A DNA stretch of 64,000 nt from Romanomermis culicivorax (taxonomy: Eukaryota; Nematoda; Enoplea; Mermithida; Mermithidae), in contig CAWUHX010000117.1 of NCBI GenBank assembly GCA_963922205.1, positions 310,001 through 374,000 on the forward strand, in the 5' to 3' direction. The translations under genes and the position numbers were made by a program. Below, one piece after another: positions 1,893 through 29,456 of the stretch; position 1 is the stretch's first letter; each line of letters starts with the position of its first letter. The notes beneath the pieces are model-generated. The model saw only the letters and a program-made list of their open reading frames with translations. It had not been told where the DNA came from and ran no database searches.

Positions 1893-1910
1893 TGGCGAGG
1901 CTGGAAAATC
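1893..1910 (+). promoter_or_regulatory. Primer-binding site of element A
   Basis: TGGCGAGGCTG begins at the base after the 5' LTR. TGG complements the CCA end of a tRNA, as expected for minus-strand priming. The same 11-base core occurs next to the 5' LTR of element B, so both elements appear to use the same tRNA. The tRNA itself was not identified. Confidence 0.75.
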
Positions 1911-8084: not shown

Positions 8085-9734
8085 ATGAGTGAACACTTAC
8101 AAATTTTGTTTGTACAGTTGTTTTTGACAATAAAATTGACCTTGGTAGCATCACTGTTTCTAGGGCTGAGTTTGTCAGCACCGGCGGCTCAGTATCAATT
8201 TTGCGGTCTCTCAAGAAGCGGACATCCACTTGAGTTACCCCAGCGTGTAGAGTGTAAACCACCCCAATCTTCATGGAGCCCGCGGCGCATGAATGTTACG
8301 GTGTATGTCCCTAGCTCAGACCCGATTACAGCCACAGCGTGGAAATGCACATTGCCCTCCCGCAAAGTCTGCACCAACACTGGTTTCTTTGGCTCTAGGG
8401 GCATCACTGCAGATGTCATCACCACTCAGCACTTAGCGCCTGCGGCATGCACGCTAGCACATCGCACTAAGATGTTTGGTTCACAAAAACTTGTCGGCAT
8501 TCGCCCTGGCTTTTATAGCACAAACCAAACATTGGAAGTGATATACGAATGGTGCTGCAGCGACGTCTGCAAGACAGTGACTAACCTCTTCATCGAGGAG
8601 GGACAAGTCGCTTCGTGGGACGGCACTACGGCCCTAAGCACCTTAGGCGATGTAGGTGGATGCAGTCCCACTGCAGGCCAGTGCACTACTCTAGACGAGG
8701 TCATTGTCTGGCCTGCACAAAACTTCGCGGCGTGGTGTCATTATCACCCCAAGGGAAATTACACTGCGTCCATGTCAGGGAACCACGTCATCATCGATGA
8801 TCTACAGGTTGCCCTCAAGATCCCGGGAAACTCCCGCGTCTTCCAACTGTGCCCAGAACTACGTTCCACCACAGTCCGGACGGATCAGGGTCTTCTCCTT
8901 TGCATCCATGGGAGATACAATTTGACCCAAAACTTGTTCAGAATGGCAAAGGACACCCGTCCCGATCCTGTCAATGCCAAACTGAACTACCTGGCTCAGC
9001 AGATCAAGGGGTCAGAAATTAACGGTTTCCGGTTCACGTGGCTTGAGCTCTGCTCTCACGCTCAATGCTATCTTGATCTGACTTGGCAGTTGCTTCGCTT
9101 CGACCCTACCTTGGGTGCCCGGGCATTCCTCCAGAGGAATGACCTGACGGCGGAATTCACAGGCGATGCACTGACAATATGGCCGTGTCAGAAGGTCAAC
9201 GCCACCTACGTTTACCACTCGTACCGGGTGGGAAACGTTTGCTACAAGTACTTACCTGTACAGGTCGGCGGCACCATCTATTTCGCCACCCCCAGTGGTC
9301 CAGATCTCATTAAATCTAGCCCAATTGTGCGGTGTCATCACCACTTTACAGGGGTTTTCCGAAATCGCTCGGGCTGGTTTACTGAGTCTGGCGCGGTCCA
9401 TGTGAGCCACATCCCACTGGAACTCTTCTGGAAGCAGCGTTTCAACATCACTCACTTTGAGGCACCGGCGCTCTTCCATGACCAGTTGGCGATGACCCCT
9501 TCAAACTTTGCCTTCTTTAAACAGTACGTTTACAAGACTGAGCAAATTGAAGCGGTACTCAACCGGCTGGTAAACTTTACCACTGGTCTATCCCTGCAAC
9601 CAGACGCCATTTACCAGGCCTTTGCAGGGGTAGGAACCGAATCAAGGCCTCTCTGGAAGGTGTCGGTTTGGCAGCAAACCATGTTATCACGGGTCAACAA
9701 CACACCCTCGCCCAGGGCTTGCATGCTGTCCTGA
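8085..9734 (+). CDS. env: Envelope-like membrane glycoprotein of element A
   Basis: The ATG at 8085 is followed by a hydrophobic leader (about residues 7-36) and then a Cys-rich ectodomain that begins YQFCGLSRSGH. It aligns along its length with the ectodomain of element B, sharing FEWCC/YEWCC...C-KTVTNL, GQVASWDG, GGC...GQC, VIIDDLQ and ARAFLQR-D motifs, and it has several N-X-S/T glycosylation sites. In B the same protein continues into a transmembrane helix. Here the frame shifts near 9638-9641 and the helix follows in another frame from 9668. The position upstream of protease and RT is unusual, since Gypsy env genes normally lie after integrase. The fusion-protein class was not established; the CPY/GGC pattern faintly recalls class III glycoproteins, but that is only a guess. 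Confidence 0.75.
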   Translation: MSEHLQILFVQLFLTIKLTLVASLFLGLSLSAPAAQYQFCGLSRSGHPLELPQRVECKPPQSSWSPRRMNVTVYVPSSDPITATAWKCTLPSRKVCTNTGFFGSRGITADVITTQHLAPAACTLAHRTKMFGSQKLVGIRPGFYSTNQTLEVIYEWCCSDVCKTVTNLFIEEGQVASWDGTTALSTLGDVGGCSPTAGQCTTLDEVIVWPAQNFAAWCHYHPKGNYTASMSGNHVIIDDLQVALKIPGNSRVFQLCPELRSTTVRTDQGLLLCIHGRYNLTQNLFRMAKDTRPDPVNAKLNYLAQQIKGSEINGFRFTWLELCSHAQCYLDLTWQLLRFDPTLGARAFLQRNDLTAEFTGDALTIWPCQKVNATYVYHSYRVGNVCYKYLPVQVGGTIYFATPSGPDLIKSSPIVRCHHHFTGVFRNRSGWFTESGAVHVSHIPLELFWKQRFNITHFEAPALFHDQLAMTPSNFAFFKQYVYKTEQIEAVLNRLVNFTTGLSLQPDAIYQAFAGVGTESRPLWKVSVWQQTMLSRVNNTPSPRACMLS

Positions 9735-11353
9735 GCGGGCGGGTCCAGTTGATCTTTAACATCCTAGTTACCCTGACAGTGCTGATCGGTGGCGGATACC
9801 TTGCCTATCTTGGTGTATCTTATTATCTCAGCTACCGTCTGCGGAGCAAACAGGTCAGGTTTGTTAGCCGTTTCTCCCCGTTGGGTCTTTACCGCAAAGT
9901 CCAACGCTGGATCGGTTTTCACTACGTGCAAAACGATGTGCCCTCCCAGCTTGACCGAATCACACCGTGTTTCGTCGTGCTGCTGGATACCAAGGAAACT
10001 CCTGCTTTCCTTGACACGGGTTGCCCCCGCACCATCATTAGCCAACGCCTTCATAAGGCCTTGGCTAAAGAAAGTCCGAAGGCGGTCATGGCGTTCCAGC
10101 AACATCACCACTTTAACCCATTGATGAGCATCAATGGTAAAGCCGTTCATACCATCCTTTCGGGACCATATGAAATCATGTTGCCCGGAAACCGCCAGCC
10201 GAACACACGGATCGATATACATCTCCATGTGTGCAAGACTACGTCTCCCTTCTGGGCACCTGTTGACCTCATACTCGGACTGGACTTCTTAGAACAGTTC
10301 AAGAACATTATGTTTGACTACCAACGTAATGTTTGTTGGCTGGAGGCGGTAGAATTACCACTCCTGCTGACCACGCCGGAGATTGACCAGATCGACCCCT
10401 GGTGGGAGAACACCCGTGCTCTCTCACGAAACTCACACAGGTCGGGATCACGATCGCGGTCCAGGGCTTCGTCCATCTCTCGGCCACACTCACGGGCCTC
10501 CTCAGTTGCCTCATCACGTGGGTCAACCAGGGGATCCCGGGCCTCTTCTAGACGGGCAAGTCGTCATCTGTCGACCTTGCACGGGTCAGGTTGCCCTCGA
10601 CCTCCGCCTGGAAACTCTCCAGTCACGCTAGAGAAAGGCGGATACCGTGAGCCAAGTGATTCAGATGCTCCGGCATCACCCGTGCCAAATGCGCCACCGC
10701 TATCGGACACCGAGATTGAATCACTAGGAGCTACTCAGAGCCCGAAGGATCACTCAGACCACGTACTCACGGTACAGGATGAGTCCACCCTTCTAAACGA
10801 CCCCGAATCCTCTGTCGGATACGCTCTAGTAGGTCTACTACCTCGTACGGAACTGCCGATTCCAAAGGGGTCCGGTAAGATCAAACATACCAGTGGTGCC
10901 ACCACACCTGATTCCGGTCATGTGGTTTCTGCTTTTTACCCAAATGATATTCGGACACCCCATATCAAAGTTCTCCTCAACAACTGGGTAGAAGCAAAGG
11001 CACTGGTCGACACAGGAGCTGTTTTCTCACTCCTGGACCACAAGTTAGCGGCCCAGCTGCCCAACTTGTCACTTTCACCAACCAGGGCTCGTCCTATCAC
11101 AGCCAATGGGTCCCCGATCCCACTGCTAGGAGCAGCCTACATCACGGTTACAGTGGCTGATGTCTCTGAACGGATTCAGGTCCAAATACAGGAGAACTGT
11201 TCAGCTGAACTGGTTCTCGGAACAAACTTCCTTGGCCCGTTCAATTGTGTCAGCCTGAACTGGGAAAATCCTTCCTCCAGTTCAAAGAAAGTAGAATCCC
11301 CTGTGACGGTCTCATCCACAGCCCACCTTCTGCCCGCGGCGCCTTGCCCCTGA
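9668..11353 (+). CDS. pro: Env transmembrane segment fused to two retropepsin-like domains (element A)
   Basis: 561 codons. Residues about 27-55 form a hydrophobic transmembrane segment, the C-terminal anchor of the env protein whose ectodomain is encoded just upstream in another frame. A first aspartic-protease domain has FLDTG at 114-118 and the distal LILGLDF motif at 201-207. A Ser/Arg-rich linker spans about 252-300 (SRSRSRASS type). A second protease domain has LVDTG at 446-450 and LVLGTNF at 514-520. Both carry the catalytic D-T-G triad. The second domain aligns with the single protease downstream of env in element B. The frame ends because of an apparent one-base loss in the A-run at 11264-11268. 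The ATG at 9668 is probably not a true start. Confidence 0.75.
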
Positions 11354-13455
11354 AGGACTTGGTAATTCTGGAGCCTCGCTCCCTGACACGATTCACTGTA
11401 CCTGTTCCACCAATCTATACGAACGTACCTGAGGTGGCCTTCTTTCCGAAGCACCTCACCGGATCTCAAAGACACGTATATTTTGCTGGGAGCGTGAGTA
11501 GCGTGACCAACGGTCACATACCACTTCAAGTAGTTAACCCGAATACTCATTCCGTGGTTCTCTACCCGCACATGACCATCGGTCATGTGCAAATGCAAAG
11601 TGAGCCCTCACAGGGATCACCGGTCGACTCAGACACCGTCCTCGATCCTCAGTAGGTCGAGGCCAATGCTGTAATCTCACCGGATATCTCCCCTCGGGAC
11701 CGGGCAGCCTTACTCGATCTGCTGGTTGCATACACCGACCTTTATGCTCTTGATGAAAAGGACACAGGTTCCACTGATCTCATCCAGCACGAAATCAGCA
11801 TGGGCGATGCCTGCCCAGTCCGCCGTTTCCCTTACCGGTCCTCACCTAAGGAAAAGGATCTCATCATGCAGGAGGTCAAGGCGCTCCAGGAGAAAGGTAT
11901 TATTTGGCCGAGCACGTCGCCGTGGGCTACTAATACTGTCCTGGTGTGCAAGAAAAACGGTTCTCACCATATGTGTGTTGACTTTCGTGGTCTTAACGAG
12001 GTCACGAAAAAGGATGTCTACCCTCTCCTAGGGATAGATGACATTCTCGACACACTCAAGGGTATGAAGTATTTCACTACCCTTGACCAGGCTAACGCTT
12101 ATTGGTCAATCCCGATTGCCGAGGCGGATACGGAAAAGACAGCATTTAATACGCCTATTGGACTTTACGAATTCAATTATTTGCCTTTCGGTTTGTGCAA
12201 CGCGCCAGGGACATTTCAACGCCTTATGGACCTCCTCCTTACTGGAATCCAATGGCGCACGGTTCTGACATATCTCGACGACATTTTGGTGTTCGGGAAC
12301 TCTCACACCCAAATGCTTGAGCGCCTGGCAGATGTGTTCGCCGGTCTTCACGGGGGTGGAATGAAGCTCAGACTGAGCAAGTGCAAATTCTCGCACTCAG
12401 AGGTAGAGTACCTAGGCTATCGCATCTCACAGAGCGGCTTAGAACCTGACCAAGCCAAGCTGGCCGCCGTCCAAAACCTACCCATTCCACAAAACGCCAA
12501 AGACATCAAGTCCTTCCTAGGCCTCGTGTCTTATTACAGGCGTTTCATCCCTGGTTGTGCCCGGCTCAGCGAGCCACTCACCAAGCTCTTACGGAAGGAA
12601 ACTACTTTCCAGTGGTCAAAACCTCAGCAGGAGGCGTTCGATGAACTCCCCCGCCTGCTGACCAACCCTCCTATCCTGCGCCATCCGGACTTTTCGAAAT
12701 CCTTTATCCTTCAAACTGATGCAAGTATTTTGGGGATAGGAGCGGTTCTAAGCCAGTTAGACGAACTTGGATACGACCATCCTGTCGCGTACGCCAGCCG
12801 AGGGTTAACAGCGGCCGAGAAAAACTATTCCATTACAGAACTGGAAACTCTCGCTGTTGTCCATTTCGTCAAGCACTTTCGACCATACCTCTTCCAGCAC
12901 GAGGTGGTCGTTCAGACTGACCATACCGCGGTCAAAGCAGTGTTGGAGAAGCCTAACCCCTCTGCTCATATCGCCCAGTGGGGACTCGCCCTCGCCGAAT
13001 TCAAACTGACAATTCGGCCGCGAAAAGGTCAGTCTAATGGTAATGCTGATGCATTATCACGCCTGCGGGATCCTAACTCCCTCACCGGTCAGAGTATTGA
13101 TGATACTCCCCTCTACAGACCTGAGGGGCATGTTATGATGATCACCAATGGTGCGCAGCACCTGGCGAGATCAAGAACCTTGACCGATGGTGTGCAGCAC
13201 CTGGCGCGTTCAAGTAATTCAGCACTGATCACTGTTGGCGCGGAGCGCCCGGTACAATCAGAGTCCTATGCCGAGATATCGGTTGGTGCGCAGCACCCCG
13301 ACCTTTTCGCTGCTCAGCTGGAGGATCCGGACTTAGCCGACATCATTCGCTCTCTTAAGCCTCTGGGCGACCAGAATGATGTGCGCGGCTACCATCTGTT
13401 GGATAACGTTCTTCAGAAATGGACAGGCGAGTCCAATAAGATCGTCATACCCTGA
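11245..13455 (+). pseudogene. pol: Reverse transcriptase and RNase H of element A
   Basis: The frame is entered after the shift near 11265 and includes the end of the protease region. It is interrupted by TAG at 11653-11655 and then runs to TGA at 13453-13455. RT motifs include TLDQANAYW, LPFGLCNAP and the catalytic YLDD (in LTYLDDILVFG). RNase H motifs include FILQTDAS, ITELETLAVV, QTDHTAVKAVL and NADALSR. It is collinear with the pol of element B (for example KKDVYPL...IDDILDTL). A short repeated GA/VQHLARS-like stretch near residues 450-500 of the last open segment, between RNase H and integrase, has no counterpart in B. Confidence 0.9.
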
Positions 13456-13458
13456 TCC

Positions 13459-14652
13459 ATGGTTACTACCATTATCCGGGCTCATCATGATGACATCTTA
13501 GCTGGACACTTTGGTGCTAAACGTACTGCGCGGCTCATTGCTCGCAGATACCACTGGCCTTCCCTCAGTCGGGATGTCAAGTCCTTCTGTCAGCGGTGTG
13601 ATCTTTGCCAACGGAATAAGCCCGCTCGACAGAAAACCACTGCGACCCTGAAACCTATCACCATCACGGGACCGTTTCATCGGGTAGGTGTCGACTGTAT
13701 GGGACCAATGACCACTAGCGAAGCTGGCAACCGTTTCATCGTAGTCTTCATCGACTACTTTACGAAATGGGTCGAGGCTTTTGCTACTCCGGACATCACT
13801 GCGCACACCATAGCCCGGCTGTTTGTAACGCAAATTGTCTGCCGGCACGGGGCACCGCAGATTCTTCAGTCAGATCGTGGCACTGATTTCACATCAAAAC
13901 TGATGACTGAGATCACTGCGATCTGCGCAACGAAGAAAATCCACTCTACCGCCTATCATCCGATGACCAACGGGGAGGTGATAAGAGCTAATCAGACGCT
14001 AGCCACACGGCTACGTATGTATGTTCATCAAGGACATACCGATTGGGATGAACACCTACCATACGCTGTGTTTGCCGTCAATATCAGCATGAATGAGTCA
14101 ACAGGGTACTCGCCCTTTGAACTCATGTACGGTCGCACACCCATGCTCCCTGTTGATGCCGCGCTCTCATTCAACCCTCCGGCCCATATCATTAATGTTT
14201 CCTCATATGATATGGAGGTCAAACGTCATTTCACGAATGCATTAACCTTAATCTAGAGTCGGATTGAGAAAGCACAGGAGACCTACGCGCGGTCGTAGGA
14301 CCGGAAGGCACACGATGTCTCGTACAAAGTAGGGGATCAGGTGCTCAAACTGGGCACCTCCAGCAAACGTGGACTCACTCCTAAATTGCTGCCCATCTAC
14401 GATGGGCCCTACCTTGTAATAAGTGTGGCATACCCCAATGTCACACTTCGTCTCGAGATGGATCAGGAAGACACTGTACATGTCAACCAGCTTCGACTTT
14501 ACGTGTCCCCTGAACAACCGAGTGAAGCAGAGGATACACCTCCCACTTCACAGGCAACAAATTCGGCACCCTTATTGTACCCCTCAATAAGCCGGGACTT
14601 TACACCGAATCTGATTGACCCACATCTTGATGCAGAGGTCCCCGACCCTTAA
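13459..14652 (+). pseudogene. int: Integrase of element A, three stops and catalytic Glu lost
   Basis: It continues the RT frame after TGA 13453-13455, with further TAG codons at 14254-14256 and 14296-14298. The N-terminal HHCC zinc site (HFGAKRTARLIARRYHW...CQRCDLC) and the core aspartates (VDCMGP and SDRGTDF) are present. The residue 36 positions after the second Asp, which should be the catalytic Glu, is Ile (NGEVIRANQ; B has NGEVERSNQ). The C-terminal part (VGDQVLKLG...YDGPYLVISVAYPN) is the usual Gypsy integrase tail. The integrase of this copy should be inactive. Confidence 0.88.
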
Positions 14653-15211
14653 CTCAAGATGCCTTCTCTCCAATGTCCCCGCTTACGGACGAGGACGTCC
14701 TTTTTCGAAGGACCGCCGTGCCCCTCACGAAGTATCCACTCTTGTCCATGCTGGATCTTAGTGGATAGGAGAGAATGTTCAGCAACCAAAGCGTCACGCC
14801 TCAGGCGCATCCTCACGCGATAGCCTGCACTTCACTGGGTGCATCCTCTGCGATAAGCCGACAATCTGTACCTCACTGGGTGCATCCTCTGAGATAACCC
14901 GACAATCTGTACCTCACTGGGCGCATCCTCTGCGATAGCCTACATCTTGCCCTGAAAATTTTTCTTTTCTGTGTTCTAGACTGTCGCACAGGATATTCAA
15001 TGTCTGCAACTTCACGCATCAACAACCTCCGGTTACCATACCGCCGAACGAATTACGATCAAAGAAGGCTCCATCCGCCAACAACCCAATGGACCTATTC
15101 GACCACTTCCGCCGTCACACCTTGGAATGACCTACGACCACGGACACGCCGTACAAAACCTCACCACTGACCACTGCAAGGACGAGGACGCCCTTTTTCG
15201 AAGGACCGCCG
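14653..15211 (+). repeat. 3' untranslated region of A: 41-bp tandem repeats and a duplicated 33-mer
   Basis: Bases about 14807-14950 contain about 3.5 copies of a 41-bp unit (starts at 14833, 14874 and 14915) with the core CTGGGTGCATCCTCTGCGAT. A 33-bp segment beginning GACGAGGACG occurs at 14688-14720 and again at 15181-15213, the second copy abutting the 3' LTR. It contains an inverted GTCCTT/AAGGAC pair in the first copy. No clear polypurine tract precedes the 3' LTR, which is unusual. Confidence 0.75.
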
Positions 15212-16665
15212 TGTCACGTGCCGCTCACTTCTCCAACGTCACGTGATTCCGATCATGCCGACATTTTGTTACTTTTCATGTTTTGTTTATTACTCGATCA
15301 TGCTTTTGTTTATTTCATTTTTACACATGCATTTTGCGTCCATTTTTATGTTTTTCATGCATTTCTATGTTTCGTTTTGTTTTATTTTTATTTCTTTACA
15401 AACGCGGGCTACAGTAGGCCCTTTAGCTAAAAACTTCCGCCAGTCGTGCTCCACGAGCACATGGCTATTTTTGGTGCGTTCACGCACCTCTTATCATCAA
15501 AAATTAGCGTTGTTTTCTGTTACGCAAAAACGACTAGCTAAGAAGTTTTAGCTAAAGACGTTCATATGCTTAGCATAGGCACTGCAGTCGGCCTCAGTGC
15601 TAAACGCATGTGAACGAAAAAATGTCTATGTGCTCAAAGGCATCTTCTGCATCGCATCTAGCTGCAGAAGTTAGCTTGAGCGCCGAGAAACTCCGCCCAA
15701 GCTGCAGCTGTAGCCAAACATGTCCTTAAAAGGACATGTTTCTTTAGTTTTTCGCTCATTCTTGGGTTCACCAAGCTCTCGTCCGGTTGTAACTCCGCGT
15801 CCGCCGCCTTCTCGTCAAATTTGCATAATTTATTATACACCTGTGCGTCCGCCGCCTTATTACCAATAAATTTGCATAAATTTACCCTTGTTCACTGCGT
15901 CCGCCGCTTACCGCCTACAGTACCCCGCTGCCCATCAGTGCCAGGTGTCCAACCGCCCCCGGTTCGTGAAGAAAACGTTGGAGTATCGCCTCCCGCTCGC
16001 CGCCGCTCGCCGCCGCTCACCGCCGCTCGCCGCTAGGACGTTTGAGGATCGCATCCCCCGCTCCCAGTGCCAGAAGACCGAAAGCATCCAGGGACTTGCC
16101 GCCCGTTGCATCGAATCGCTTGAGAAACAGGACTAGGTGAGTCTTCTCAGGGGATTATTGTTATTTGTGGGGTATTTGTTGGGAAATCCTTCCTGAGTCG
16201 GTTTCCCAAGGTTTCCACAGATAAGTAGGGCCTCCACCTCTCAGGTTCGGGCTAAAAAGGGGCTGTCTGGTTCATAATCGGGTCCCACAAATTGGGTCAT
16301 TTTACGGGTGACCCTGTCCCCACTCTCACTGAGTAGGACACGGGGATTGTCGCACCTAGCCTGGCCGCGTTGTCCATTACCCTACAGCAAGACCCCAAGG
16401 ACAACATAAGAGAACCAACTATAGATCTCTCTATAGCCACCATTTGCCAGGTTAGGCCCCCAACGCCATTTAGGGAAGCCTGGGGAAAATGCCAGTATCC
16501 ATCAGGAGTCACAGCCTATTGCTCACTGTAATAGGATCAATCTGATATGGTTCACCATCAATGTGACGTCTAAAACATGGTATTACCTGATGAGATACCC
16601 AAACCTCCCCAGCTCTCCCAAATCCACATGTCATACACGTGACATGGATGGCGCAACATGTGACA
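15212..16665 (+). repeat. 3' LTR of element A
   Basis: This 1,454-bp copy of 455-1892 is followed by the target duplication ctac. It exceeds the 5' LTR by exactly 16 bp because of an insert near 15724 (tccttaaaaggacatg), which turns the local sequence into a 20-bp palindrome. Confidence 0.93.
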
Positions 16666-16669
16666 CTAC

Positions 16670-17423
16670 CATTCTATCAGATGTTCATTATCTTATAGAT
16701 GTTATTTGGGATGATTGAATTCACTTCACGGTTGTTGTTCAATCATTTTATAAATGTTTCTTTTTCAGAATTCTTTTACAAACTTTTACAACAGACATGC
16801 TAAATTTTTGTTCTAACCCGCAGAATTAATGTTTCAACGAATTGCAGCAGATACATACACCAAACATGAATTACATTGTCAAACAGTAGGACACTAGGTT
16901 GATTATTTTGAAGTTAAACCACACCGATATGATGAACAATCTTGGCTGGACTACTGTTTTTGATTTTTTTCTCAATGAAAGTACTAAAAATATAGAAAAA
17001 AATTAAAAATTGGAATATGTGGCATTAATTTAATTATCAGGATGGAAATACATTTGATCCTGATCAAAAAATTTGATCCGAATCAAAAATATTGATCTGG
17101 ATCAAAATCTGATTATGTGACATCAATTTACTCATCATGACGGAAAAATACAAAAAATTTTACTCTACATGGAAATTTGAAAAAAAACTTGGTCTGGATC
17201 AAAAATATTGATCTGGATCAAAATCTGATTATGTGACATCAATTTACTCATCACGAAGGAGAAATACGAAAAATTTCACTCTAGGTGGAAATTTGAAAAA
17301 AAAATTTGATTTTTCAAAATTTTCAAAAAAAAATTTTTTTCAAAATTTTCAAAAAAAAATTTTTTGCAAAAATTTCAAAAAAAAAATAAAAAAAAATAAA
17401 AAAATCTGACTATGTGACGTGCG
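16670..17423. repeat. AT-rich intergenic region with GATC-rich tandem repeat
   Basis: Bases 17025-17300 contain about two to three units of a repeat of roughly 110 bases with the core GATCTGGATCAAAA and TGACATCAATTTACTCATCA, related to bases 1-180. Bases 17290-17400 are A/T homopolymer-rich. No gene is seen. Confidence 0.55.
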
Positions 17424-17723
17424 CCAGCAGAGTTCCAGCACATGATGGAAAGAGTTTTGCATCCATATGTATGGAAGATCTGTCCAGTATATATAGATGA
17501 TATTATAGTTGATGGAGTTTCCCCAGATCCAAAAAAGGTCAAAGCTATTAAAGATTTCCCATTTACAGAGTCTAAATGAAAGTTACAGAGGTTTCTAGGA
17601 ATGCTCAAATGATGTAAAAAATTTATACCAGGGTTAGCTAAACATGCTGAACCTTTATACAAGTTAACTGGGAAGAACTCTGTTTGGGAAATTACAGAGG
17701 TTCACCATCAGGCTTTTAGGAGC
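17424..17723 (+). pseudogene. Reverse transcriptase fragment (element C-like clade)
   Basis: Translating across frames gives an RT stretch with [40 protein letters not shown] and KLTGKNSVWEI. It is closest in this window to element C ([27 protein letters not shown]). Compared with a second copy at 31077-31515 it lacks about 160 bp after the YIDD motif. It has stops and shifts and is a relic. Its last part (VHHQAFRSLM) reads directly in frame into the next ORF. Confidence 0.7.
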
Positions 17724-19208
17724 CTGATGGTGAAAAACCAATATGATTTTTCACTAAAGGCAAACCGTGATCAGTTTGCCAAGAAAGGAATTTTGCAGGA
17801 AGAGGTTAGGTATGCAGCTCTAGACGCATACTGTTCACTGTTGGTCATGTTTGTCGCTATTTATTATGGCATGGCCAATCAGCTGCTAATGCAAATGCAT
17901 GTGTTCGATCATGACAAGATGGATCCCAAACAGATCAACACTGTAGCCCTTCATTTTTACCAGCAATATTCAGTAATACCAGGGCACCTGAATTGAGAAA
18001 TGGGACTAGGTTCCCCAGTAATGGAAACTGATCAGGTACAGCCTAATATGGTCTACCATATGATGAAGTGTAAAATGTACAACCGTTGGGCAATTCAAAT
18101 GCAGGGAAATAACACCAGTTATTATATTGCACCTACGGCATGCAATCCTGTCTGTCCTCAAGGCATACAATTGCCAAGTGGTTTTTACCCACTACTCCCG
18201 AGGGATTGCAAACCACTAAAAGACCACCGGTACAGCGAAGACAGTGATTCCGACAAAATCCAGGACGTACAAATACCAGACTGGGTAAATATTAGCAAAG
18301 ATATATTGGAAAATCTCAAAACAGGTGCAATGTATTGGGATTTAGAAGGTAAGATATCTTTGACTCTTTATGAAAATGCTAAGCTATACTGGCAGCAAGC
18401 TGGGAAGCCTGATGACATTCCACAAGAAGCGTTTTCTTGTAGTAATCATTACCCAGTGGGTATAGATGGCCATAAGGAAGTCTACAAGACAAACTTTTAC
18501 ACACCAAATTCGGCCAAAATTTGGAGTATGCTAGATGAGCCAAACTTTCTGGAGTTAGAGCAGATCTGTAAATTCATGCCATTGGCCTATCATTCGGCAT
18601 GGCCTCACTCTAGAGCGGAGTGCCACTATGAAAGTAATGCGTTGCTAAATCATAATTTTCTAAATAGTTATACTAGGGAAGCCCAGGAAATGATCAAACA
18701 CATGTCCTGGAAGTCAGGCGACCGCCGGGCTTACTATTTAGAGTTAGCGGCCACATTGCCGCCGTTGGAACCGCGAAATCCAACCAAGAAAGGGGTATAT
18801 GCATGGCAAAATCAGTTCGGGTTTGTCCCGCTACGATTCAGAGAAGCCGAAGAAATTCTACAAATCTGTGACTACACATCGTTATTGAAGGATGAAGCTT
18901 ATAAGGTGAATCCTTATTATTACGTAACTTTTTACCATATAGGCTTCGAGATTTTAAGGCCGGGGCTGCGATATCCTATGACGGAAGATGCACAACCAAC
19001 CGATTATCCAATGGCTTATGCACAACAAAATCCGCTTGAACTCAGGCCAGAATTTGTCAGTAAAAGTTTCCAGGAGAGAATGCTGGCTTGGGATATGCCT
19101 GGGTATACGTTAACTTATACCCCAGCTGGTGAGTTAGTTTCAAAAGTACCGTTAAATCATCCCTCAACTTCCCAAACAGCGCAAGCTAGAGGGTTGGGGG
19201 CAGGTTAA
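17724..19208 (+). pseudogene. Unrecognised ORF with DEDD 3'-5' exonuclease motif III at its start
   Basis: One frame with a single TGA (17994-17996). The first 90 codons contain EVRYAALDAYCSLL, which fits motif III (Y-X3-D) and flanking residues of DEDDy 3'-5' exonucleases of the WRN/Mut-7 type. Motifs I and II are absent, so only the C-terminal part is present. The next 400 codons, starting at 18000, are well-behaved coding sequence with no domain I recognise. They are rich in Trp/Tyr/Pro, with an acidic patch SEDSDSDKI and a C-terminal region [10 protein letters not shown]-like. They could be a Gag-like or host-derived protein. The frame runs on from an RT fragment and ends at TAA 19206-19208. 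Confidence 0.45.
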
Positions 19209-19491
19209 AGTACAGCCGCAAGTGCCAGTGCCGGTGGTCAAAGTGAAACAACCAGCTTTGGACACCGCTGCTCCGCAAGCAGCTGCAGTAGTAGTCATGG
19301 TGCCGCTGCCAACATAACCAGCGGTGGCACAGCCAACTCCAGTAGATCAGGTACAACAACCGGCAGAGCCTGAATCACAAGTAGTCACCATAATGCACGC
19401 TGTACTTCAGGCACCAGCTGTTTTACCAGCTAAAGTAAAGCAACTGTTGCCCAAGATATGTAATTCAGACTCGGGGTCCAGTTCAGAGGAG
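19209..19491 (+). pseudogene. Pro/Val/Ala-rich coding remnant interrupted by element B
   Basis: After a frame change near 19195, codons in the third-phase frame give a Pro/Val/Gln/Ala-rich segment ([19 protein letters not shown]) with one TAA. It ends in an acidic Ser/Glu run that is cut by the LTR of element B at 19491. Coding resumes at 30536 with a matching acidic run, so B interrupted this reading frame. Confidence 0.5.
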
Positions 19492-20563
19492 TGTCAGGGT
19501 CTAACTTCTTAAAAGAAAACTAGGTAGGAGTACTGTAAGGATAACACAATTTGATATGCAGGTATTTGGCCCCTGAATACTTATGTCCTTGGGTAGTTTA
19601 ACAAGTGGATTTGTAATTTTAAGATTTATTGGAAACTTATCAAATTTAATATACACTAGTACATACTTGGAAATGAATAGGGTGTGAACCTATTCTTCGG
19701 GTACTGTTGGCAGTACATATCTATCGATATAATGATATATATATAGAAATAAGTAAACGATTCCAATAAATGAACGAAATAAAATGCAGTAATGAACTGA
19801 ACTGGACTGAAGATACTGAACTGAACGAGCTAGAATGGACTGAACTGGAATTGAACGAGCTAGAATGGACTGAACCAGAATTGAACGAGCTAGAATGGAC
19901 TGAACCAGAATTGAACGAGCTAGAATGGACTGAACCAGAATTGAACGAGCTAGAATGGACTGAACCAGAATTGAGCTGAGGATAAGAGTTACAGGCTCTT
20001 ATATACAGCTTTTCATGCTAGATTGGTTTAATTAACTTCTGCTATCTTATCTTTTGATTAATGTTTGTTTTTGTTTATTTCACACCATATGTGTGTGCTC
20101 TAGCAGGAGCAAAGGTTACTGTATTTTTATCTAAGAGGTCTAGGTGATTATTTGCCTCTTTTGACCCATCTGCTTCCATTTCTGGTAGTTCATCTTGTTT
20201 TAGGAGGCCTGTGTTTAAGATCGGCCATAACTCCCATTTATTTTATACAACATATATTTTTGAACCCTTAGAGGATTCCATATGGTCGGAACCTTTTGAT
20301 ACTTACTTTGTACAGTATTTTTATTTTCCACTGAACGGATATTTCAAGGTTCATTAGGTTTATAAGTTATCTTTAGAGAGTAGGTTTGCATGATTGATAA
20401 TATTTTCAGTTTGGTTCCATATGTGCAACATTTAAGTGAAGCGATAAAAATTAAGATAATAATAAAATAACTACAGTAGGAATTGACTTGAATCGCGAAA
20501 TTTACATGCTTTTCTCACAAACACTACTAAAATTTATGTTTGAATTTTCACTTTTGCTTGACA
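19492..20563 (-). repeat. 3' LTR of element B
   Basis: Direct repeat of 29460-30531. On the plus strand it starts TGTCAGGG and ends TTGACA. It contains five 30-bp units at 19821-19970 (core GAACGAGCTAGAATGGACTG) that stay open in one plus-strand frame as NELEWTEPEL repeats. Confidence 0.95.
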
Positions 20564-20577
20564 TTCCTCTTCTTCTA
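20564..20577 (-). promoter_or_regulatory. Polypurine tract of element B
   Basis: On the minus strand GAAGAAGAGGAAT directly precedes the 3' LTR. This is the expected primer for plus-strand synthesis. It sits just downstream of the integrase end (20683). Confidence 0.75.
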
Positions 20578-20682
20578 GAATTGAACGTCCTTGTTCATTT
20601 TGCGACTTCTCAAATTGTACTTGATTTCATGCTTCATTGTTCCATCTTTGTTGGTTTGTATTTTGCCACAATTGTTGGATGG

Positions 20683-23600
20683 TCATTCTATAATTTGGGG
20701 CGTCCGTCCATAATAAGGCTTTGTTCGGTTGACATGAATTACTTCCACTCCATTCGTTCCTGTGGGATTTTCTATCTCCAGATTTGGATAATTTATTGCC
20801 TTCACTTTATAAGGCTCTTCATAGATAGGCATTAGTTTCTTTATAAGACCTTTTTTGATGATCTCCGATTCTTTCAAGACTAGGTCGTTTACTCTATAGT
20901 CCACATTTTTTGCCTTTTTGTCATACACCTTTTTGTATGCACTTTGTGCCTTTTCTATTTGTTCCTGGACTATGTTCAAAGCCATAGTGAAGTGTTTCTT
21001 GACCTCTGCATCATAAGTAGCCAAGTCTAAGAAATAAAGAGGTTGTGTATGATTGATGACCACATCAATAGGCAATTTTGGAACTCGCCCATATATTACT
21101 TCAAAAGGTGAGAATTGTGTGGATGCGTTTGTATGTATGTTGGTGGAAAAGACTGCATAAGGCAGGTGTTCATCCCAATCAGTTTGGTTTTTGTCCACAT
21201 ACATTCTAATTCTTGTGGCAATTGTTTGATTAGATCTTTCTACTTCTCCATTAGCAATAGGATGGTAGGCAGTAGTATGTATCTTGTGCACACCCATAAG
21301 CTTTGTGATTTCTTTCATAAGGTCAGATGTAAAATCACTTGTCCTATCAGATTGTAGTATTTGTGGTGCTCCATGTCTACAAACTATTTTTGTGATGAAG
21401 ATTTTAGCAATAGTTTCTGCTGTTATATTAGATACAGCAAAGGCTTCTACATATTTTGTGAAGTGATCAATGAAGACAACTATGAATCTGTTTCCATTTT
21501 CTGTCATAGGTAGTGGTCCCATACAATCTACAGCCATTCTATCAAAAGGTCCACTTGTTAATATTGGCTTCAGATTTGCTTTAATTTTGTGTCGTACTGG
21601 TTTATTTATTTGACATTTTTTACACATTTTACAATAGAGTTGGACATCTTTGTGCAAAGTATTCCAGTGATAACGTTTTGAAATCAGTTGTATGGTTTTC
21701 TTTGCACCAAAGTGTCCAGCTAATTCATCATCATGATTAGATTCAATAATTAATTTCTTCATTGATTGCGGGATTATTATTTTTTTTATCCCATTTTTAT
21801 TAAGAAATAATATTTCATTTTCAAGACAAAAGGATTTTACATGTTCTGAAGGTAAGCAACCTTTTCTTATGTTATTTATGACCTCTTTAAGTTCAGGATC
21901 ATTTTGTTGCAAAGATTTTAGATCAATTTCCTGGTGATCAGTGTTCAGACAGACAACACTATTATCTTTTACAGAGGGTCGATAATTTTCCTCATTATCA
22001 ATATCATAAGATTGTTTAGCAATAGGATTAGGATTTCTAGAAAGTGCATCAGCATTGGCATTTTTGGACCCTTTTCTTGGTCGAATATCAAGTTTTGTGC
22101 CAGCTAAAGCATAACCCCATCTGTTTATTCGAGCAGATGCATTTTCTTTTTCTAACACTGTTTTGACTGCAGTGTGGTCTGTTTCTACTTTAACTTCTTG
22201 CTGATAGAGATAGCATCGAAAATATTTTACAAATTCGACAACAGCTAGAGTTTCTAATTCAGTTATTGGATAATTTTTCTCAGCTGGTTTAAGAGCTCGA
22301 GATGCAAAAGCAATAGGATGTTCCAGATCATCCTTCCCAATTTGACTCAATACTGCACCAATTCCTTCTTTTGATGCATCAGTTTGAAGTATAAACTGTT
22401 TTGTAAAGTCAGGATGCATAAGTATTGGTTCTTGCATCAACTTCTTCTTTAATTCTTCAAAGGCTTTATTTTCTCTTTCTTCCCATTTAAAGTCTTGTCC
22501 TTTTTTCAATAGTTTGGTCAATGGGTTTGATATTTGTGCACATTTAGGAATGAATTTTCTGTAATAGGATATGACGCCTAAGAATGATTTTACTTCTTTT
22601 ACATTTTTAGGTGGCATCATATTTTCCACTGCTTCAATCTTTTTGGTATCAGGTTTAATACCATCTTGACTTATGATATGACCAAGATACTCGACTTCTT
22701 TTTGTGAGAATTTACATTTATCTATTCTTAATTTTAAACCACCCTCATACAATCTGTCAAGGATGATCTTCAGACGATCAAGCATTTCCTTGTGATCCTT
22801 TCCAAAAACTAATATATCATCCAGGTATACCAAACAAATGTTCCATTGTAAGCCTGATAATAGTAGATCCATAAGTCTTTGGAATGTTGCAGGAGCATTG
22901 CATAGCCCAAATGGAAGATAGTTGAATTCAAAAAGACCAACAGGAGTAGTGAAAGCTGTTTTTTCTTTATCTTCAGGTGAGATTGGTATAGTCCAATAAG
23001 CATTAGCTTGATCCAAAGTGGTGAAATATTTCATATTATTTAAGGTGTCTAAGATGTCATCAATTCTTGGTAATGGGTAGACATCTTTCTTTGTTACTGA
23101 ATTGAGTTTTCGAAAATCTATACACAATCTATGGCCTCCATCTTTTTTTCGTACAAGAACAACATTTGTTGACCAAGGTGATGTACTTTTTGAGATTATT
23201 CCTTTTTCTTCCAATGCTTTAACTTCAGCCACGATTATTTCTTTCTCTTTTGGCGCAGTTCTGAATGGGTAATTTCTGATTGGTAAACTTTCACCTGTTA
23301 TAATCTTGTGGTGTACCAAGGTTGTTCTGCCAGTATCTTTTTTGTCCAGAGCATACAGATCAGGATATGCTTCCAATAAAGCAAACAGATTTTGCTTTTC
23401 TTCTTCAGGTAGGGATTGGGGTACAATCACATTTTCTCTCAACCATTGCTTTGTTACCAACCTATGTTCATGTTGGGCTTCTTGAGCTGATTTGAAGCAT
23501 TTAACATTTCCCAGTTTGGAATTCTTGTACAAAGTTAGAGGTTCATTACTGGTGTTCATTGCTTGAACTGGAATAGTTTTGTTTTCCACATTAGATACTG

Positions 23601-26600
23601 ATGATGCAAAATAAGGTTGATTTCCTTTGGAGCATAATGAAGGTTCAAATTGTACTTCAGGAATGTGTTCATACAAGGTAGAGATGCAACCTGTTAAACA
23701 AACTATGGATTGAGGTGGAATAACAACATTTTCACTCAAGTAGACTCCACCACGTAATGCTATTGGTACATGTACCATACCAATGCATGGAATTGTTTCA
23801 TTTCTGAATTTTACAAATGATTTCTCCCATGAGAGAGTAATTTGATTAAATCGGCCAAAGAAATTAGTGCCTAGTATTAGATCGGCAGTACAATTATCTT
23901 GTACATGAACCAGTATGGTTCCTTTTACATCTGCAACTTTTATTGTGATATATATAGCACCTTTGATTTGTATTTCCAATCCATTTGCTGCAATCGGCTT
24001 GGTTGCAGTTTTTATCATTGAAATGTCATCAAGTTGAGAGACAAGACTGGAGTCAATAAGAGAGTACACAGCTCCAGTATCTAAGAGAGCTAGAACTGGA
24101 ATTTTTCCATTCAACAAAACTTTCATGTAAGGAGTCCGTTTTTGACTGGTGATATAATTTATTGCAACTTGTGTTTCAATCACTTGATGAAAATCAACTT
24201 GATCTTTCTCTTTTTCATATTTTAAAAGAAATGGAATTTTTCGTTTTTTACTCCTAATGTGAGCAAGCTTGAGAAGATTTGCTCCTAGGGGTAATTCATC
24301 TGCACTTGCAGGGCTAGGTGATTTTCTAATGAGCTCAGCTTTATATCGCAGCAAGCATATGTAAGCAATATATCCAATGGCAAGAAGGATAAGACAAACA
24401 ATAAAAATATTGCAGATGAGCTGTACAGGCCCACGTAATAAGTTAGTAAAACCATCTACAAAATTTCTTTGAGAATCATAGACAACATGTTCGAAAAATT
24501 TACCAGCAGATGTTAATCCATTTTTAATATCAGGACTTGTATCAGATAGTGCCTGATACAAAGTTTGTGGATTAAGTGACATAGAAGTAGCATAAGAGAT
24601 CATCTTTTCCAGCATTTTCTCTATTTGCTGTGTCTTATATATGTACTGTTTCAAGAAGATAATTTCATTTGATGCTTTTGACAGCTTATCATGAAAAAGA
24701 GCAGGAGTGTCAAATTGATAAATATTAGTATGTCCTTTCCAATTTAATTCTATAGGGATTTCATTCACATAGGTGATACCAGATTTAGTTATCCAAGTAT
24801 TATTTTTCTTAAAAATTCCTACAGTGTGATGCTGACAATCTACTTGAGGACTATAATCAGTAAGATCATTACTTCCAGGAGAAACAAACATCAGATTTCC
24901 CATGTATCTGACGGGTACATATTTATAACAGACATTGTCTACTTTGTAGTCATAGAAAATTTCTGTGACATTAACTTTCATGCATGGCCATACTGTGAGT
25001 GCTTCTCCAGTAAATTCTGCAATAATGTCATCTCTTTGCAAGAAGGCACGGGCACCCATAGTACTATCAAAACGTAACATTTGCCAAATAAGATCAACAT
25101 ATCTTTGAACATATCGACACATCTCAAGCCAAACATGGCGAAAATTATCCATTTCATTTTTGAAGATTTTAATCTCCAAAAAATTCAATTTGGCATTAAC
25201 AGGATCAGCTGTTTGTGATCTAAAAAGAGAAATTCTTATTCTGTCTTTTGGAACCTGGTGTATTTTTAAGAGAATACCTTGTGGAGTTCGCAACACATTT
25301 TGAATGCTTGGACATCTTCTGTATGCAGAACCCAATTTGAAAGCACCTTGCAAATCTTCGATTATGACAAAAGTTGAACTGAGTATAGCAGAATAATTTC
25401 CTTTAAAAACATAAGGGCATATATCAGTTACATTCCTTTCATCCCAAATAATAGTGCCATCAGGTGTGTTGCATTGGCCTGCCATAGCTTTGCAGCCACC
25501 AGCATCACCAAGGTCAGTAAGCATATTTTCTCCATCCCAACTAGCCACTTGACCTTGTTCAATTATCAGGTTTGTTACAGTTTTGCATATGTCTTTACAG
25601 CACCATTCAAAAGAAGGTGTAAGACTGTTATTAGTTGACCAAAGTTTATTTCCTATTCTTTTCAAGGATTGATGGGAATAGGATTTACTTTCAAATACAT
25701 TTTTGCACTCAGTTGCACTAATTTGTTCACTCTTTACTGCGTCTTGAATTATGGTTTTTGATCCAAAGAATCCACTATTGGTGCATAATGTTCTTGAACA
25801 TTTTAGACATTTGTATGCTTGAGAAAGTTGAGGTTCTTGCCGAGGAATGTAAACAGATACATTCAAATGAGCTACTGATGCAAGCTTTTCAGGAGCAATG
25901 CATTTCATAGTTTTTGTAATATTAATTGCATGTCCACTTCTAGATGTTCCACAGATCTGGAACTGGGGGTGACATTTTATTGGAATGATTAAATAGTTCA
26001 GTAAGATTAAAAGAAACATTATATAAGTGAAGTATTTTACATAAATTAAGATAAACGAATCATGTGACAATGATTTTTGTGCACTTCTTTTGCTTTTCTC
26101 TGCATTTCCATTGCAAAATAAGACTGCTTTGTCATTCTGTGACTTAAATAATAACAAATTCAAAAAGATAAGAAGGAAATAAGAGAGAAAGTTTGTAGTT
26201 TTTTTACTGTTTAAAGCGTAACGCCTTTCTTCTTCAATTTGGTCGATATAACCTTGGGCTTCCTCTTGTAAACGAGCTTTTTCCGCCAAATCTTTTGTGG
26301 TCTCCAGCTGATGTTTGATCAGCCCATACATTGTAGGCAATTTGATCATAGGCCAGGTATATGGGTAATCTTCGAAGCCATCCGGAGTTTCGAACGGGTA
26401 ACTCTGATGTTCCATACTAGTTTTTGGTGTCAAGTCACCTTCCTCTGCTGGATTGCCTAAGTTTTCAAATCCACTCAGGGAGAACAATTCTAAATCATCT
26501 TTTACTTTGCAATAAAGATCTGCATTTTTCTCTTCATATCCACAAGTAACTCCATAGGTCTCGAGGACAGAAGTTTCAGCTATTTTTGCTTCAGATTCAG

Positions 26601-26625
26601 GAGAAGCATAATCAGGAATAGCTCT
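20683..26625 (-). CDS. env-pol: Env-protease-RT-RNase H-integrase polyprotein of element B
   Basis: About 1,981 stop-free codons; residue numbers below count from the Met-like codon at 26487. Hydrophobic segments lie at about 99-114 and 144-170. The second acts as a signal or anchor before a Cys-rich ectodomain (about 171-685: ICGTSRSGH, FEWCCKDICKTVTNL, GQVASWDG, CPYVFKGNYS). A transmembrane helix spans 688-713. Retropepsin follows with LLDTG at 801-805 and ILGTNF at 871-876. RT has YLDD at 1221-1224. RNase H has FILQTDAS, TDHTAVK and NADALSR. Integrase has an HHCC site (about H1592, H1607, C1619, C1622) and the catalytic triad D1654, D1714, E1750. There is no frame break between env and pol, so they would be made as one chain unless spliced. 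The frame is separated from the upstream protease only by a TAA (26626-26628). Confidence 0.92.
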   Translation of the reverse strand, partial: RAIPDYASPESEAKIAETSVLETYGVTCGYEEKNADLYCKVKDDLELFSLSGFENLGNPAEEGDLTPKTSMEHQSYPFETPDGFEDYPYTWPMIKLPTMYGLIKHQLETTKDLAEKARLQEEAQGYIDQIEEERRYALNSKKTTNFLSYFLLIFLNLLLFKSQNDKAVLFCNGNAEKSKRSAQKSLSHDSFILIYVKYFTYIMFLLILLNYLIIPIKCHPQFQICGTSRSGHAINITKTMKCIAPEKLASVAHLNVSVYIPRQEPQLSQAYKCLKCSRTLCTNSGFFGSKTIIQDAVKSEQISATECKNVFESKSYSHQSLKRIGNKLWSTNNSLTPSFEWCCKDICKTVTNLIIEQGQVASWDGENMLTDLGDAGGCKAMAGQCNTPDGTIIWDERNVTDICPYVFKGNYSAILSSTFVIIEDLQGAFKLGSAYRRCPSIQNVLRTPQGILLKIHQVPKDRIRISLFRSQTADPVNAKLNFLEIKIFKNEMDNFRHVWLEMCRYVQRYVDLIWQMLRFDSTMGARAFLQRDDIIAEFTGEALTVWPCMKVNVTEIFYDYKVDNVCYKYVPVRYMGNLMFVSPGSNDLTDYSPQVDCQHHTVGIFKKNNTWITKSGITYVNEIPIELNWKGHTNIYQFDTPALFHDKLSKASNEIIFLKQYIYKTQQIEKMLEKMISYATSMSLNPQTLYQALSDTSPDIKNGLTSAGKFFEHVVYDSQRNFVDGFTNLLRGPVQLICNIFIVCLILLAIGYIAYICLLRYKAELIRKSPSPASADELPLGANLLKLAHIRSKKRKIPFLLKYEKEKDQVDFHQVIETQVAINYITSQKRTPYMKVLLNGKIPVLALLDTGAVYSLIDSSLVSQLDDISMIKTATKPIAANGLEIQIKGAIYITIKVADVKGTILVHVQDNCTADLILGTNFFGRFNQITLSWEKSFVKFRNETIPCIGMVHVPIALRGGVYLSENVVIPPQSIVCLTGCISTLYEHIPEVQFEPSLCSKGNQPYFASSVSNVENKTIPVQAMNTSNEPLTLYKNSKLGNVKCFKSAQEAQHEHRLVTKQWLRENVIVPQSLPEEEKQNLFALLEAYPDLYALDKKDTGRTTLVHHKIITGESLPIRNYPFRTAPKEKEIIVAEVKALEEKGIISKSTSPWSTNVVLVRKKDGGHRLCIDFRKLNSVTKKDVYPLPRIDDILDTLNNMKYFTTLDQANAYWTIPISPEDKEKTAFTTPVGLFEFNYLPFGLCNAPATFQRLMDLLLSGLQWNICLVYLDDILVFGKDHKEMLDRLKIILDRLYEGGLKLRIDKCKFSQKEVEYLGHIISQDGIKPDTKKIEAVENMMPPKNVKEVKSFLGVISYYRKFIPKCAQISNPLTKLLKKGQDFKWEERENKAFEELKKKLMQEPILMHPDFTKQFILQTDASKEGIGAVLSQIGKDDLEHPIAFASRALKPAEKNYPITELETLAVVEFVKYFRCYLYQQEVKVETDHTAVKTVLEKENASARINRWGYALAGTKLDIRPRKGSKNANADALSRNPNPIAKQSYDIDNEENYRPSVKDNSVVCLNTDHQEIDLKSLQQNDPELKEVINNIRKGCLPSEHVKSFCLENEILFLNKNGIKKIIIPQSMKKLIIESNHDDELAGHFGAKKTIQLISKRYHWNTLHKDVQLYCKMCKKCQINKPVRHKIKANLKPILTSGPFDRMAVDCMGPLPMTENGNRFIVVFIDHFTKYVEAFAVSNITAETIAKIFITKIVCRHGAPQILQSDRTSDFTSDLMKEITKLMGVHKIHTTAYHPIANGEVERSNQTIATRIRMYVDKNQTDWDEHLPYAVFSTNIHTNASTQFSPFEVIYGRVPKLPIDVVINHTQPLYFLDLATYDAEVKKHFTMALNIVQEQIEKAQSAYKKVYDKKAKNVDYRVNDLVLKESEIIKKGLIKKLMPIYEEPYKVKAINYPNLEIENPTGTNGVEVIHVNRTKPYYGRTPQIIE

Positions 26626-27821
26626 TTAAGTATTTGAAGTCACAGGAGCATATAGCATGCCACTAGCTTCGACAGGAATAGATTTAAATGTGATCGTAGA
26701 GTTCAACCCATTAAATTGGACATTTTCGAAATTAGACAGGAAATTTGAACCCAGAATAATTTGAGCTAGAGCTTTCTTTTGAATATATACCAAAAGTTTT
26801 ATGTCAACATCTTCAACTTTTATGTTTATATAGGCTGACCCTATCAAATCAATCTTTCGGCCATTTGCTGCCATTAATTCAATATTAGTCCTCAGAATTT
26901 GTACTTGAGGAACTTTTTGGATGATTTCCAAATCAACTATAGATAAGACAGCTCCAGTATCAATTAAAGCATAGGCTGTGCTGTGATTATTCAAAAGAAC
27001 TCTTACGTAAGAAACTCTACTACTGAAACGATCATTGTACCATGAAATCGGGCAGATCAAAATCTTAGTTGGTTCCTTACTCTTATCTTTCGATACTTTC
27101 ATTTTCGAAATTTGTTTCTTTGTTGCCTCATCACTGAACAAATTTTCTTGAACAATCAATGGTTCCTGAACAGCATTCGATAAAACCAAATCCTGTGCGA
27201 CGACTTCAGTTGCACCAATCGGGATGTCATTGGAATGCGTCAAAACGAAGTTTTCGGCTGATGATTGTGAAACCATCTGGGGGTCCTCATCAGCATTTTC
27301 TTGCAAAGCGTGTCGTGGACAAAAACAACACGTGCAAACAGGAGCTGAATTTACAAATAAAGATTCCTCATGGTCACATGGTTCTTTGAGATTTTGGAGA
27401 TTTTCATCATCACAATCAATGTTAGGAATGTGATTTTGTTTGTTAATGCAAGTGACAATGTCACTCCTCACTGGAATTCTCTTTTGAAAAGGTTTTCTAC
27501 TTTCATTCTGTGGAAATTTTGATCCACGTCTCTCAAAATTATAAGTAGACTGTAAATTTCTTTGAGAAAAAGATTGATTCTGCCAACCATTTCTAAAACT
27601 ATGACTCTTACCATCATCTCGTTTTGGCAGCTTGCAACGCAAGTTGTTGTGGCCAGTCTTGCCACAATTGCTGCACGGAATCGGACATTCAACAGTACGA
27701 TGTCCGACATGACCACAAATTTGTCACGTTCGATTATTAGAAAAATCGACGGTCTTTTTTGTGCAGTCGAGAGACTTGTGCCTAACATCGCCGCAATAAT
27801 CGCAAGGGCGGTATTTCCCAT
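26626..27821 (-). CDS. Zinc knuckles plus first retropepsin (protease a) of element B
   Basis: In the -1 frame relative to gag. The first part encodes CDYCGDVRHKSLDC, then a knuckle whose first Cys codon is TGA (27724-27726, followed by QICGHVGHRTVEC), then CSNCGKTGHNNLRC. After a linker comes a retropepsin domain with VRVLLNNHSTAYALIDTG and IILGSNFL near the end. It is a paralogue of the protease downstream of env, so the two proteases bracket env. An isolated stop TAA at 26626-26628 lies in frame with the env-pol frame downstream. The true start is uncertain; it is probably reached by frameshifting from gag. Confidence 0.75.
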
Positions 27822-29440: not shown

Positions 29441-29456
29441 TTTGCAGCCTCGCCAA
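29441..29456 (-). promoter_or_regulatory. Primer-binding site of element B
   Basis: On the minus strand TGGCGAGGCTGCAAA lies four bases after the end of the 5' LTR. The first 11 bases equal those of element A, implying a shared tRNA primer. Confidence 0.7.

What the first reader, a model, noticed from the sequence alone, without database searches (positions are those of the whole stretch)
8085..26625. Envelope-like gene lies between gag and protease/RT in two Gypsy-type elements
In A (8085-9734) and B (within 20683-26625) a homologous Cys-rich, signal- and anchor-bearing glycoprotein precedes protease, RT and integrase. Ty3/Gypsy env genes (for example errantiviruses) and retroviral env genes normally follow integrase. 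Two elements with clearly different GC content and LTRs share the order, so it is not a one-off rearrangement. I know of no described family with this order, but cannot search.
Basis: partly seen in the sequence, partly recalled or inferred. Interest (0 to 1): 0.88.

Follow-up and report, generated by a model that had tools for sequence, protein, structure and literature searches.

The report
Retroelements with envelope fused to polymerase
Two jumping elements carry an envelope gene, of the kind that negative-strand RNA viruses use to enter cells, between their shell gene and their copying enzymes instead of at the end; in one of them envelope and enzymes form a single reading frame, and unnamed relatives in public data show the same layout.

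Summary
Elements A (+, 455-16665) and B (-, 30531-19492) are LTR elements of Ty3/Gypsy type, each with a 4-bp target duplication. In both, an Env-like glycoprotein lies between gag and protease-RT-RNaseH-integrase. In B, Env, its membrane anchor and all of pol form one open frame of 1,980 codons (20683-26625). The ectodomain is viral: Pfam Monjiviricetes_fusion matches above cut-off in A and B, and a moderate-confidence model matches class III fusogens (herpes gB E 1.1e-15; a nyamivirid glycoprotein 1.9e-20). An unnamed metagenomic protein, P0003, has Env-anchor-protease-RT-RNaseH in one frame; another, P0016, has an N-terminally cut Env, anchor, protease, RT, RNaseH and integrase. A, B, P0003, P0016 and four more proteins form one RT-RNaseH clade (100/99). 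A clade member with an intact Gag-Pol frame, P0014, lacks the ectodomain, so Env is not universal. Likely mechanism (inferred): a polyprotein that spans the membrane, with Env in the ER lumen and Pol in the cytosol, cut by the element's protease. I found no description of this order in the open papers searched. New variant of a known kind (envelope capture), with an unusual architecture.

The parts
455..1892 (+). Element A 5' LTR (TGTCA...TGACA); TSD CTAC just outside
1893..1903 (+). Element A primer-binding-like site TGGCGAGGCTG (shared with B)
   Evidence: tRNA not identified
5405..6184 (+). Element A gag capsid part (Ty3_capsid), ends at an in-frame stop
   Evidence: Pfam 3.3e-07; ORF
6185..6844 (+). 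Element A gag C-terminal / Cys-His-rich part, same frame as capsid part
   Evidence: read by eye
8085..9734 (+). Element A Env: signal-like segment and class III type ectodomain; frame ends before the anchor
   Evidence: PF24664 1.8e-12
9749..9805 (+). Element A Env membrane anchor, in the frame of the following protease ORF
   Evidence: hydropathy; motif
9947..10330 (+). Element A extra retropepsin-like domain (DTG ... ILG), weak
   Evidence: best Pfam E 0.1, below cut-off
10970..11236 (+). Element A protease (PF13975)
   Evidence: 6.7e-12
11656..13455 (+). Element A RT and RNase H
   Evidence: ORF
13456..14256 (+). Element A integrase (zinc-binding and core)
   Evidence: C-terminal part in ORF 14299-14652
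15212..16665 (+). Element A 3' LTR
29460..30531 (-). Element B 5' LTR; TSD CTCC just outside
29445..29455 (-). Element B primer-binding-like site TGGCGAGGCTG, 4 nt inside the LTR end
27828..28871 (-). Element B gag capsid part (Ty3_capsid); a stop and a frame change follow
   Evidence: 2.9e-07
26626..27723 (-). Element B nucleocapsid zinc knuckle(s) and first protease domain PR1 (about 27012-26728), ending at TAA
20683..26625 (-). Element B Env-Pol single frame, 1,980 codons
24352..26070 (-). Element B Env: signal-like segment (26055-25999), ectodomain, membrane anchor (24408-24352)
   Evidence: PF24664 8.3e-17
23851..24123 (-). Element B protease PR2
   Evidence: PF13650 6.1e-06 above cut-off, PF13975 3.2e-06 just below
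22105..23154 (-). Element B RT and RNase H
21259..21774 (-). Element B integrase zinc-binding and core
19492..20563 (-). Element B 3' LTR, purine-rich tract directly before it

Best explanation
A and B belong to one lineage of Ty3/Gypsy (Metaviridae-type) elements. An ancestor took up a class III fusion glycoprotein related to those of Monjiviricetes (the class of Mononegavirales and Jingchuvirales) and placed it between gag and protease, in frame with pol. Shown: the order, the single frame in B, P0003 and P0016, the viral nature of Env, the single RT clade. Inferred: translation gives a membrane-spanning Env-Pol (perhaps Gag-Env-Pol) chain; the signal segment sends the ectodomain into the ER lumen, the anchor stops transfer, and protease-RT-RNaseH-integrase stay in the cytosol, where the element's own protease cuts them free. 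Env would then be carried on budding particles and serve entry or cell-to-cell spread, while Pol reaches the assembly membrane attached to Env.
Against: P0014, inside the clade, has a 1,903-aa Gag-protease-RT-RH-IN frame without the ectodomain, so Env is dispensable for, or lost from, some members. P0018 starts just before the anchor and P0019 and P0020 do not reach the protease, so only 4 of 8 clade members show Env sequence. At a laxer hydropathy threshold (1.7) one protein outside the clade, P0088, also counts, and P0014 comes in at 1.6; 20 of the 63 have under 100 residues before protease, so they test little. In B the charge is the same before and after the anchor (+1, +1). A's Env frame and pol are interrupted; B's gag is interrupted and a TAA lies before the Env-Pol frame. 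No RNA, protein or particle data; host unknown; one copy each of A and B. The model is of moderate confidence and the TM-scores listed are low (0.14-0.44). The Env tree (6 rows) has no starred branch, so one capture versus several is not resolved from Env.
Confidence: 0.62

Rival explanations
1. The order is real, but Env is expressed apart from Gag, from a spliced or internally started RNA that covers env-pol, or by reading through a stop; the shared frame with pol is used only sometimes.
For: In B a TAA separates NC-PR1 from Env-Pol, and the next 70 codons of the frame hold no Met (read by eye); retroviral Env is normally made from a spliced RNA (general knowledge; also stated in PMC10309623, passage).
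Against: P0014 shows that a clade member keeps Gag and Pol in one frame without a stop. No RNA data either way.
Confidence: 0.3
2. The membrane part mainly anchors Pol to membranes; the ectodomain is a passenger and the element is not infectious.
For: P0014 has no ectodomain but two weaker hydrophobic stretches before protease (19-residue hydropathy 1.63 and 1.61).
Against: 13 cysteines invariant in 5 sequences that are pairwise only 29-46% identical, 4-8 sequons in each of the six Env rows, and a recognisable class III fold point to selection on the ectodomain itself.
Confidence: 0.12
3. A fossil accident: env (from a virus or another element) inserted by chance into dead Gypsy copies, or an assembly or metagenome chimera.
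For: A and B both have broken frames in gag or elsewhere.
Against: Env-anchor-protease order in A, B, P0003 and P0016, from the window and two different metagenomic contigs, within one RT clade; B's Env-Pol frame is open over 1,980 codons at about 35% GC.
Confidence: 0.04
4. The Cys-rich segment is a cellular membrane protein, not a viral glycoprotein.
For: None found.
Against: Pfam matches above cut-off and the fold matches listed are to viral fusion proteins.
Confidence: 0.02

Closest known systems
Errantivirus-type Ty3/Gypsy elements (gypsy and kin)
   Same: Ty3/Gypsy pol with an envelope acquired from another virus
   Different: Env described as likely of baculovirus origin (PMC12440569, passages seen) and, as recalled, a separate ORF after integrase; here a class III type Env precedes protease, in frame with pol in B
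Anakin, BEL/Pao elements with a chuvirus glycoprotein (PMC7642597, abstract and passages seen)
   Same: glycoprotein related to those of Jingchuvirales/Mononegavirales captured by an LTR element
   Different: BEL/Pao, not Gypsy. The 2023 follow-up found Gypsy fragments beside such glycoproteins but no clear evidence of capture by Gypsy (PMC10084718, passages seen)
Bdelloid TelKA LTR elements (PMC5408684, passages seen)
   Same: LTR element with a negative-strand virus fusion protein
   Different: class I, paramyxovirus F-like protein in ORF3
Cer7 (BEL) with a herpesvirus-derived Env, as listed in PMC7642597
   Same: herpesvirus-related, hence perhaps class III, Env
   Different: BEL/Pao; Env downstream of the polyprotein
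Lokiretroviruses (as told in PMC9040795, passages seen)
   Same: Env similar to Mononegavirales fusion glycoproteins
   Different: retroviral lineage with dual RNase H; gene order not checked
MDG1-group elements with sORF2 (PMC11952523, passages seen)
   Same: fusogen-like protein encoded upstream of pol in Drosophila LTR elements
   Different: short FAST-like protein before gag, no glycoprotein, not fused to pol
Alphavirus structural polyprotein (recalled)
   Same: cytosolic capsid, then signal, glycoprotein and anchor in one chain
   Different: no polymerase behind the glycoprotein; analogy of topology only

Membership tests
Ty3/Gypsy (Metaviridae) | pol order protease-RT-RNaseH-integrase | tested here: met
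   both elements
Ty3/Gypsy (Metaviridae) | Ty3-type capsid | tested here: met
   PF19259 30.4 bits (A) and 30.6 (B), just above the cut-off 29.1
Ty3/Gypsy (Metaviridae) | LTRs with TG...CA ends, short TSD, primer-binding site | tested here: met
   the priming tRNA was not identified
Ty3/Gypsy (Metaviridae) | GPY/F module at the integrase C-terminus | tested here: inconclusive
   GPY in A (ORF 14299-14652), EPY at that place in B; read by eye
Ty3/Gypsy (Metaviridae) | place in a named clade (Mag, Mdg1, Errantivirus and others) | not tested
   no named reference set at hand; the nearest rows are unnamed
Errantivirus | env downstream of integrase | tested here: not met
   about 120 nt between IN stop and 3' LTR in B; Env lies before protease in both
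Errantivirus | baculovirus F-like (class I) Env | tested here: not met
   Env matches PF24664, BDV_G and gB, class III types, and no F family was listed
Anakin (BEL/Pao) | BEL/Pao gag and pol | tested here: not met
   gag matches Ty3_capsid; RT neighbours include one named 'Gypsy' (P0015); no BEL/Pao reference row was in the trees
Class III fusogens / Monjiviricetes glycoproteins | sequence profile above curated cut-off | tested here: met
   A 46.5, B 60.8 bits against 27; P0016 60.2
Class III fusogens / Monjiviricetes glycoproteins | class III fold | tested here: met
   moderate-confidence model, so fold class only
Class III fusogens / Monjiviricetes glycoproteins | membrane fusion activity | not testable with these tools
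   needs the bench
Lokiretrovirus | dual RNase H with tether | tested here: inconclusive
   RNase H matches cover one stretch between RT and IN; no dedicated test

The most novel reading that the evidence does not exclude
A lineage of retroelements that makes one Gag-Env-Pol chain threaded through the ER membrane, with a class III envelope as a lumenal domain inside the polyprotein and, in B, protease copies on both sides of it: an envelope that is part of pol, not a separate gene, and that can be lost again by recombination between the two protease copies (P0014's protease groups with B's upstream protease PR1, 89/90, a short-domain tree below the starred level).
Probability: 0.33. Interest if true: 0.87.

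Novelty: new variant of a known kind. Interest (0 to 1): 0.72.

Why it matters
Envelope capture is held to be the step from retrotransposon to retrovirus, and in the cases that I know env is a separate gene after pol, usually made from its own spliced RNA. An envelope placed before protease and in one frame with pol would show another route: Env and Pol in equal amounts, Pol tethered to the assembly membrane, no need for splicing. It also adds a Ty3/Gypsy capture of a class III glycoprotein of negative-strand RNA virus type, for which the 2023 survey (PMC10084718, passages) reported no clear evidence in Gypsy. The clade gives a natural set (with and without ectodomain) to test this.

Tried and rejected
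Rejected: canonical 3' env (no room in B); non-viral domain; chance insertion (same order in four elements of one clade). Led nowhere: Env in viral contigs and genome contigs and RT in viral contigs: pattern matches, none confirmed as a relative; Env by single sequence in PDB (none; by profile weak, best E 0.017); first Env model poor (pLDDT 44); Rfam and tRNA scans of the window empty, so host and primer tRNA are not identified; Env tree unresolved. The genome search was busy, so the window's own genome was never searched. Rhabdovirus G and gp64 crystal structures are not among the 50 rows shown; that is no evidence against them. Rows dropped: of the 120 proteins listed (of 7,199 hits), 13 with short RT matches were left out of the trees; the 56-row tree used 8 clade rows, 14 chosen rows and a random 34 of the rest, the 110-row tree all kept rows. 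The membrane-segment count covers the 63 proteins whose protease my pattern found. Env profile search: 4 of 122 proteins hit, but 3 of these (P0001-P0003) had helped to build the profile; only P0016 is independent.

Full report
What is in the window. Element A lies on the + strand between LTRs 455-1892 and 15212-16665 (1419 of 1454 aligned columns identical), flanked by the 4-bp duplication CTAC. Element B lies on the - strand between LTRs 30531-29460 and 20563-19492 (1072 nt each, 9 mismatches), flanked by CTCC. Both LTR pairs start TGTCA and end TGACA, and both elements have TGGCGAGGCTG at (A) or 4 nt after (B) the end of the 5' LTR; the tRNA is not identified. blastn between A and B (E<=1e-3) gave six short matches, none in the LTRs.

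Gene order. Pfam places a Ty3-type capsid, an Env with PF24664 (Monjiviricetes_fusion, E 1.8e-12 in A, 8.3e-17 in B), an aspartic protease, RT, RNase H and integrase in this order in both. In B, Env, protease, RT, RNase H and integrase share one frame from 26625 to 20683. About 120 nt follow the integrase stop before the 3' LTR. In A the ectodomain frame ends at 9734 and the anchor lies in the frame of the protease ORF (9551-11353); further stops and frame changes lie in gag and pol. B has a stop and a frame change in gag and a TAA before the Env-Pol frame.

Relatives. A search with the Env piece gave two proteins (P0001, P0002); a search with an Env-protease-RT piece scored on Env gave P0003, 1,424 aa, Env-protease-RT-RNaseH in one frame. 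A pol search gave 7,199 hits among 7,973 scored candidates, 120 listed. Six of these have 63-70% identity to B's RT-RNaseH; the rest listed have at most 58%, and at most 57% (P0048) where 90% or more of the query is covered. Of the six, P0016 has Env (cut at its start), anchor, protease, RT, RNaseH and integrase in one frame; P0018 begins just before the anchor; P0019 and P0020 begin after the protease; P0014 has a 1,903-aa Gag-protease-RT-RNaseH-integrase frame without the ectodomain.

Phylogeny. In a tree of 56 RT-RNaseH rows A, B and the six form one clade, 100/99, with P0048 as sister, 100/99; in a quick tree of 110 rows the clade has SH-aLRT 99. P0048 starts within RT, so its upstream part is unknown. 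A membrane segment within 700 residues before protease (hydropathy >=1.9) was found in 3 of 63 proteins with an identifiable protease, all in the clade; at 1.7 P0088 outside the clade joins, at 1.6 P0014; 20 of the 63 have under 100 residues before the protease. P0014 groups with P0019 (97/90) and, less surely, B (83/77), which suggests loss of the ectodomain rather than a primitive state. B's upstream protease PR1 is 35% identical to PR2 and groups with P0014's protease (89/90, not starred): loss of Env by recombination between two protease copies is a possibility, not shown. A has a weak extra retropepsin-like domain after the anchor (Pfam 0.1).

Mechanism. The 20 residues after the anchor carry net positive charge in 5 of 5, though in B no more than before it. 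The protease DTG/DSG follows the anchor after about 60-100 residues in B, P0003, P0016 and P0018; in A the extra domain lies between (about 400 residues) (positions). This fits: signal segment, lumenal ectodomain, anchor, cytosolic protease-RT-RNaseH-integrase. Whether Gag is part of the same chain is open: P0014 shows a Gag-Pol frame without stop; B has a TAA. Cleavage by the element's protease, particle display and entry are inferred.

Literature. Ten paper searches were answered (open-licence PMC papers only). 'gag-env-pol' with 'retrotransposon' and 'env-pol' with 'LTR retrotransposon' and 'polyprotein' gave no paper. Seen as passages: PMC7642597 (Anakin), PMC10084718, PMC5408684 (TelKA), PMC12440569 (Troyka; abstract and passages), PMC9040795, PMC11952523, PMC10309623, PMC8672886. 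None of these passages describes env before protease. All other papers were seen as listings only. Subscription papers, most preprints and Repbase were not searched; I recall work on env-bearing Ty3/Gypsy elements across animals with gB-like Env, which I could not find here, so prior notice of this order is possible.

Limits. 

Noticed in passing
window 27012-26728 (-) and 24123-23851 (-): B has two retropepsin domains, one before and one after Env, 35% identical; the upstream one groups with P0014's protease.
   Followed up: partly
window 9947-10330 (+): A has an extra, weak retropepsin-like domain (DTG ... ILG) between the Env anchor and the true protease, followed by an Arg/Ser-rich linker.
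   Followed up: partly
window 1893-5404 (+): A has about 3.5 kb between its 5' LTR and gag; the stop-to-stop ORFs of 90 aa or more listed wholly inside it are at most 115 aa.
   Followed up: no
window 19758-20036 and 29726-30004: The LTRs of B hold an array of 15/30-bp tandem repeats.
   Followed up: no
window 17421-17837, 31069-31521, 42573-43844, 62994-63995: Fragments of other Gypsy-type RTs on both sides of B and further right; the one at 42573 lies outside the A/B clade.
   Followed up: partly
P0002, MAG of a Gammaproteobacterium: An Env fragment of this kind is filed under a bacterial metagenome bin, perhaps eukaryotic or viral contamination of the bin.
   Followed up: no
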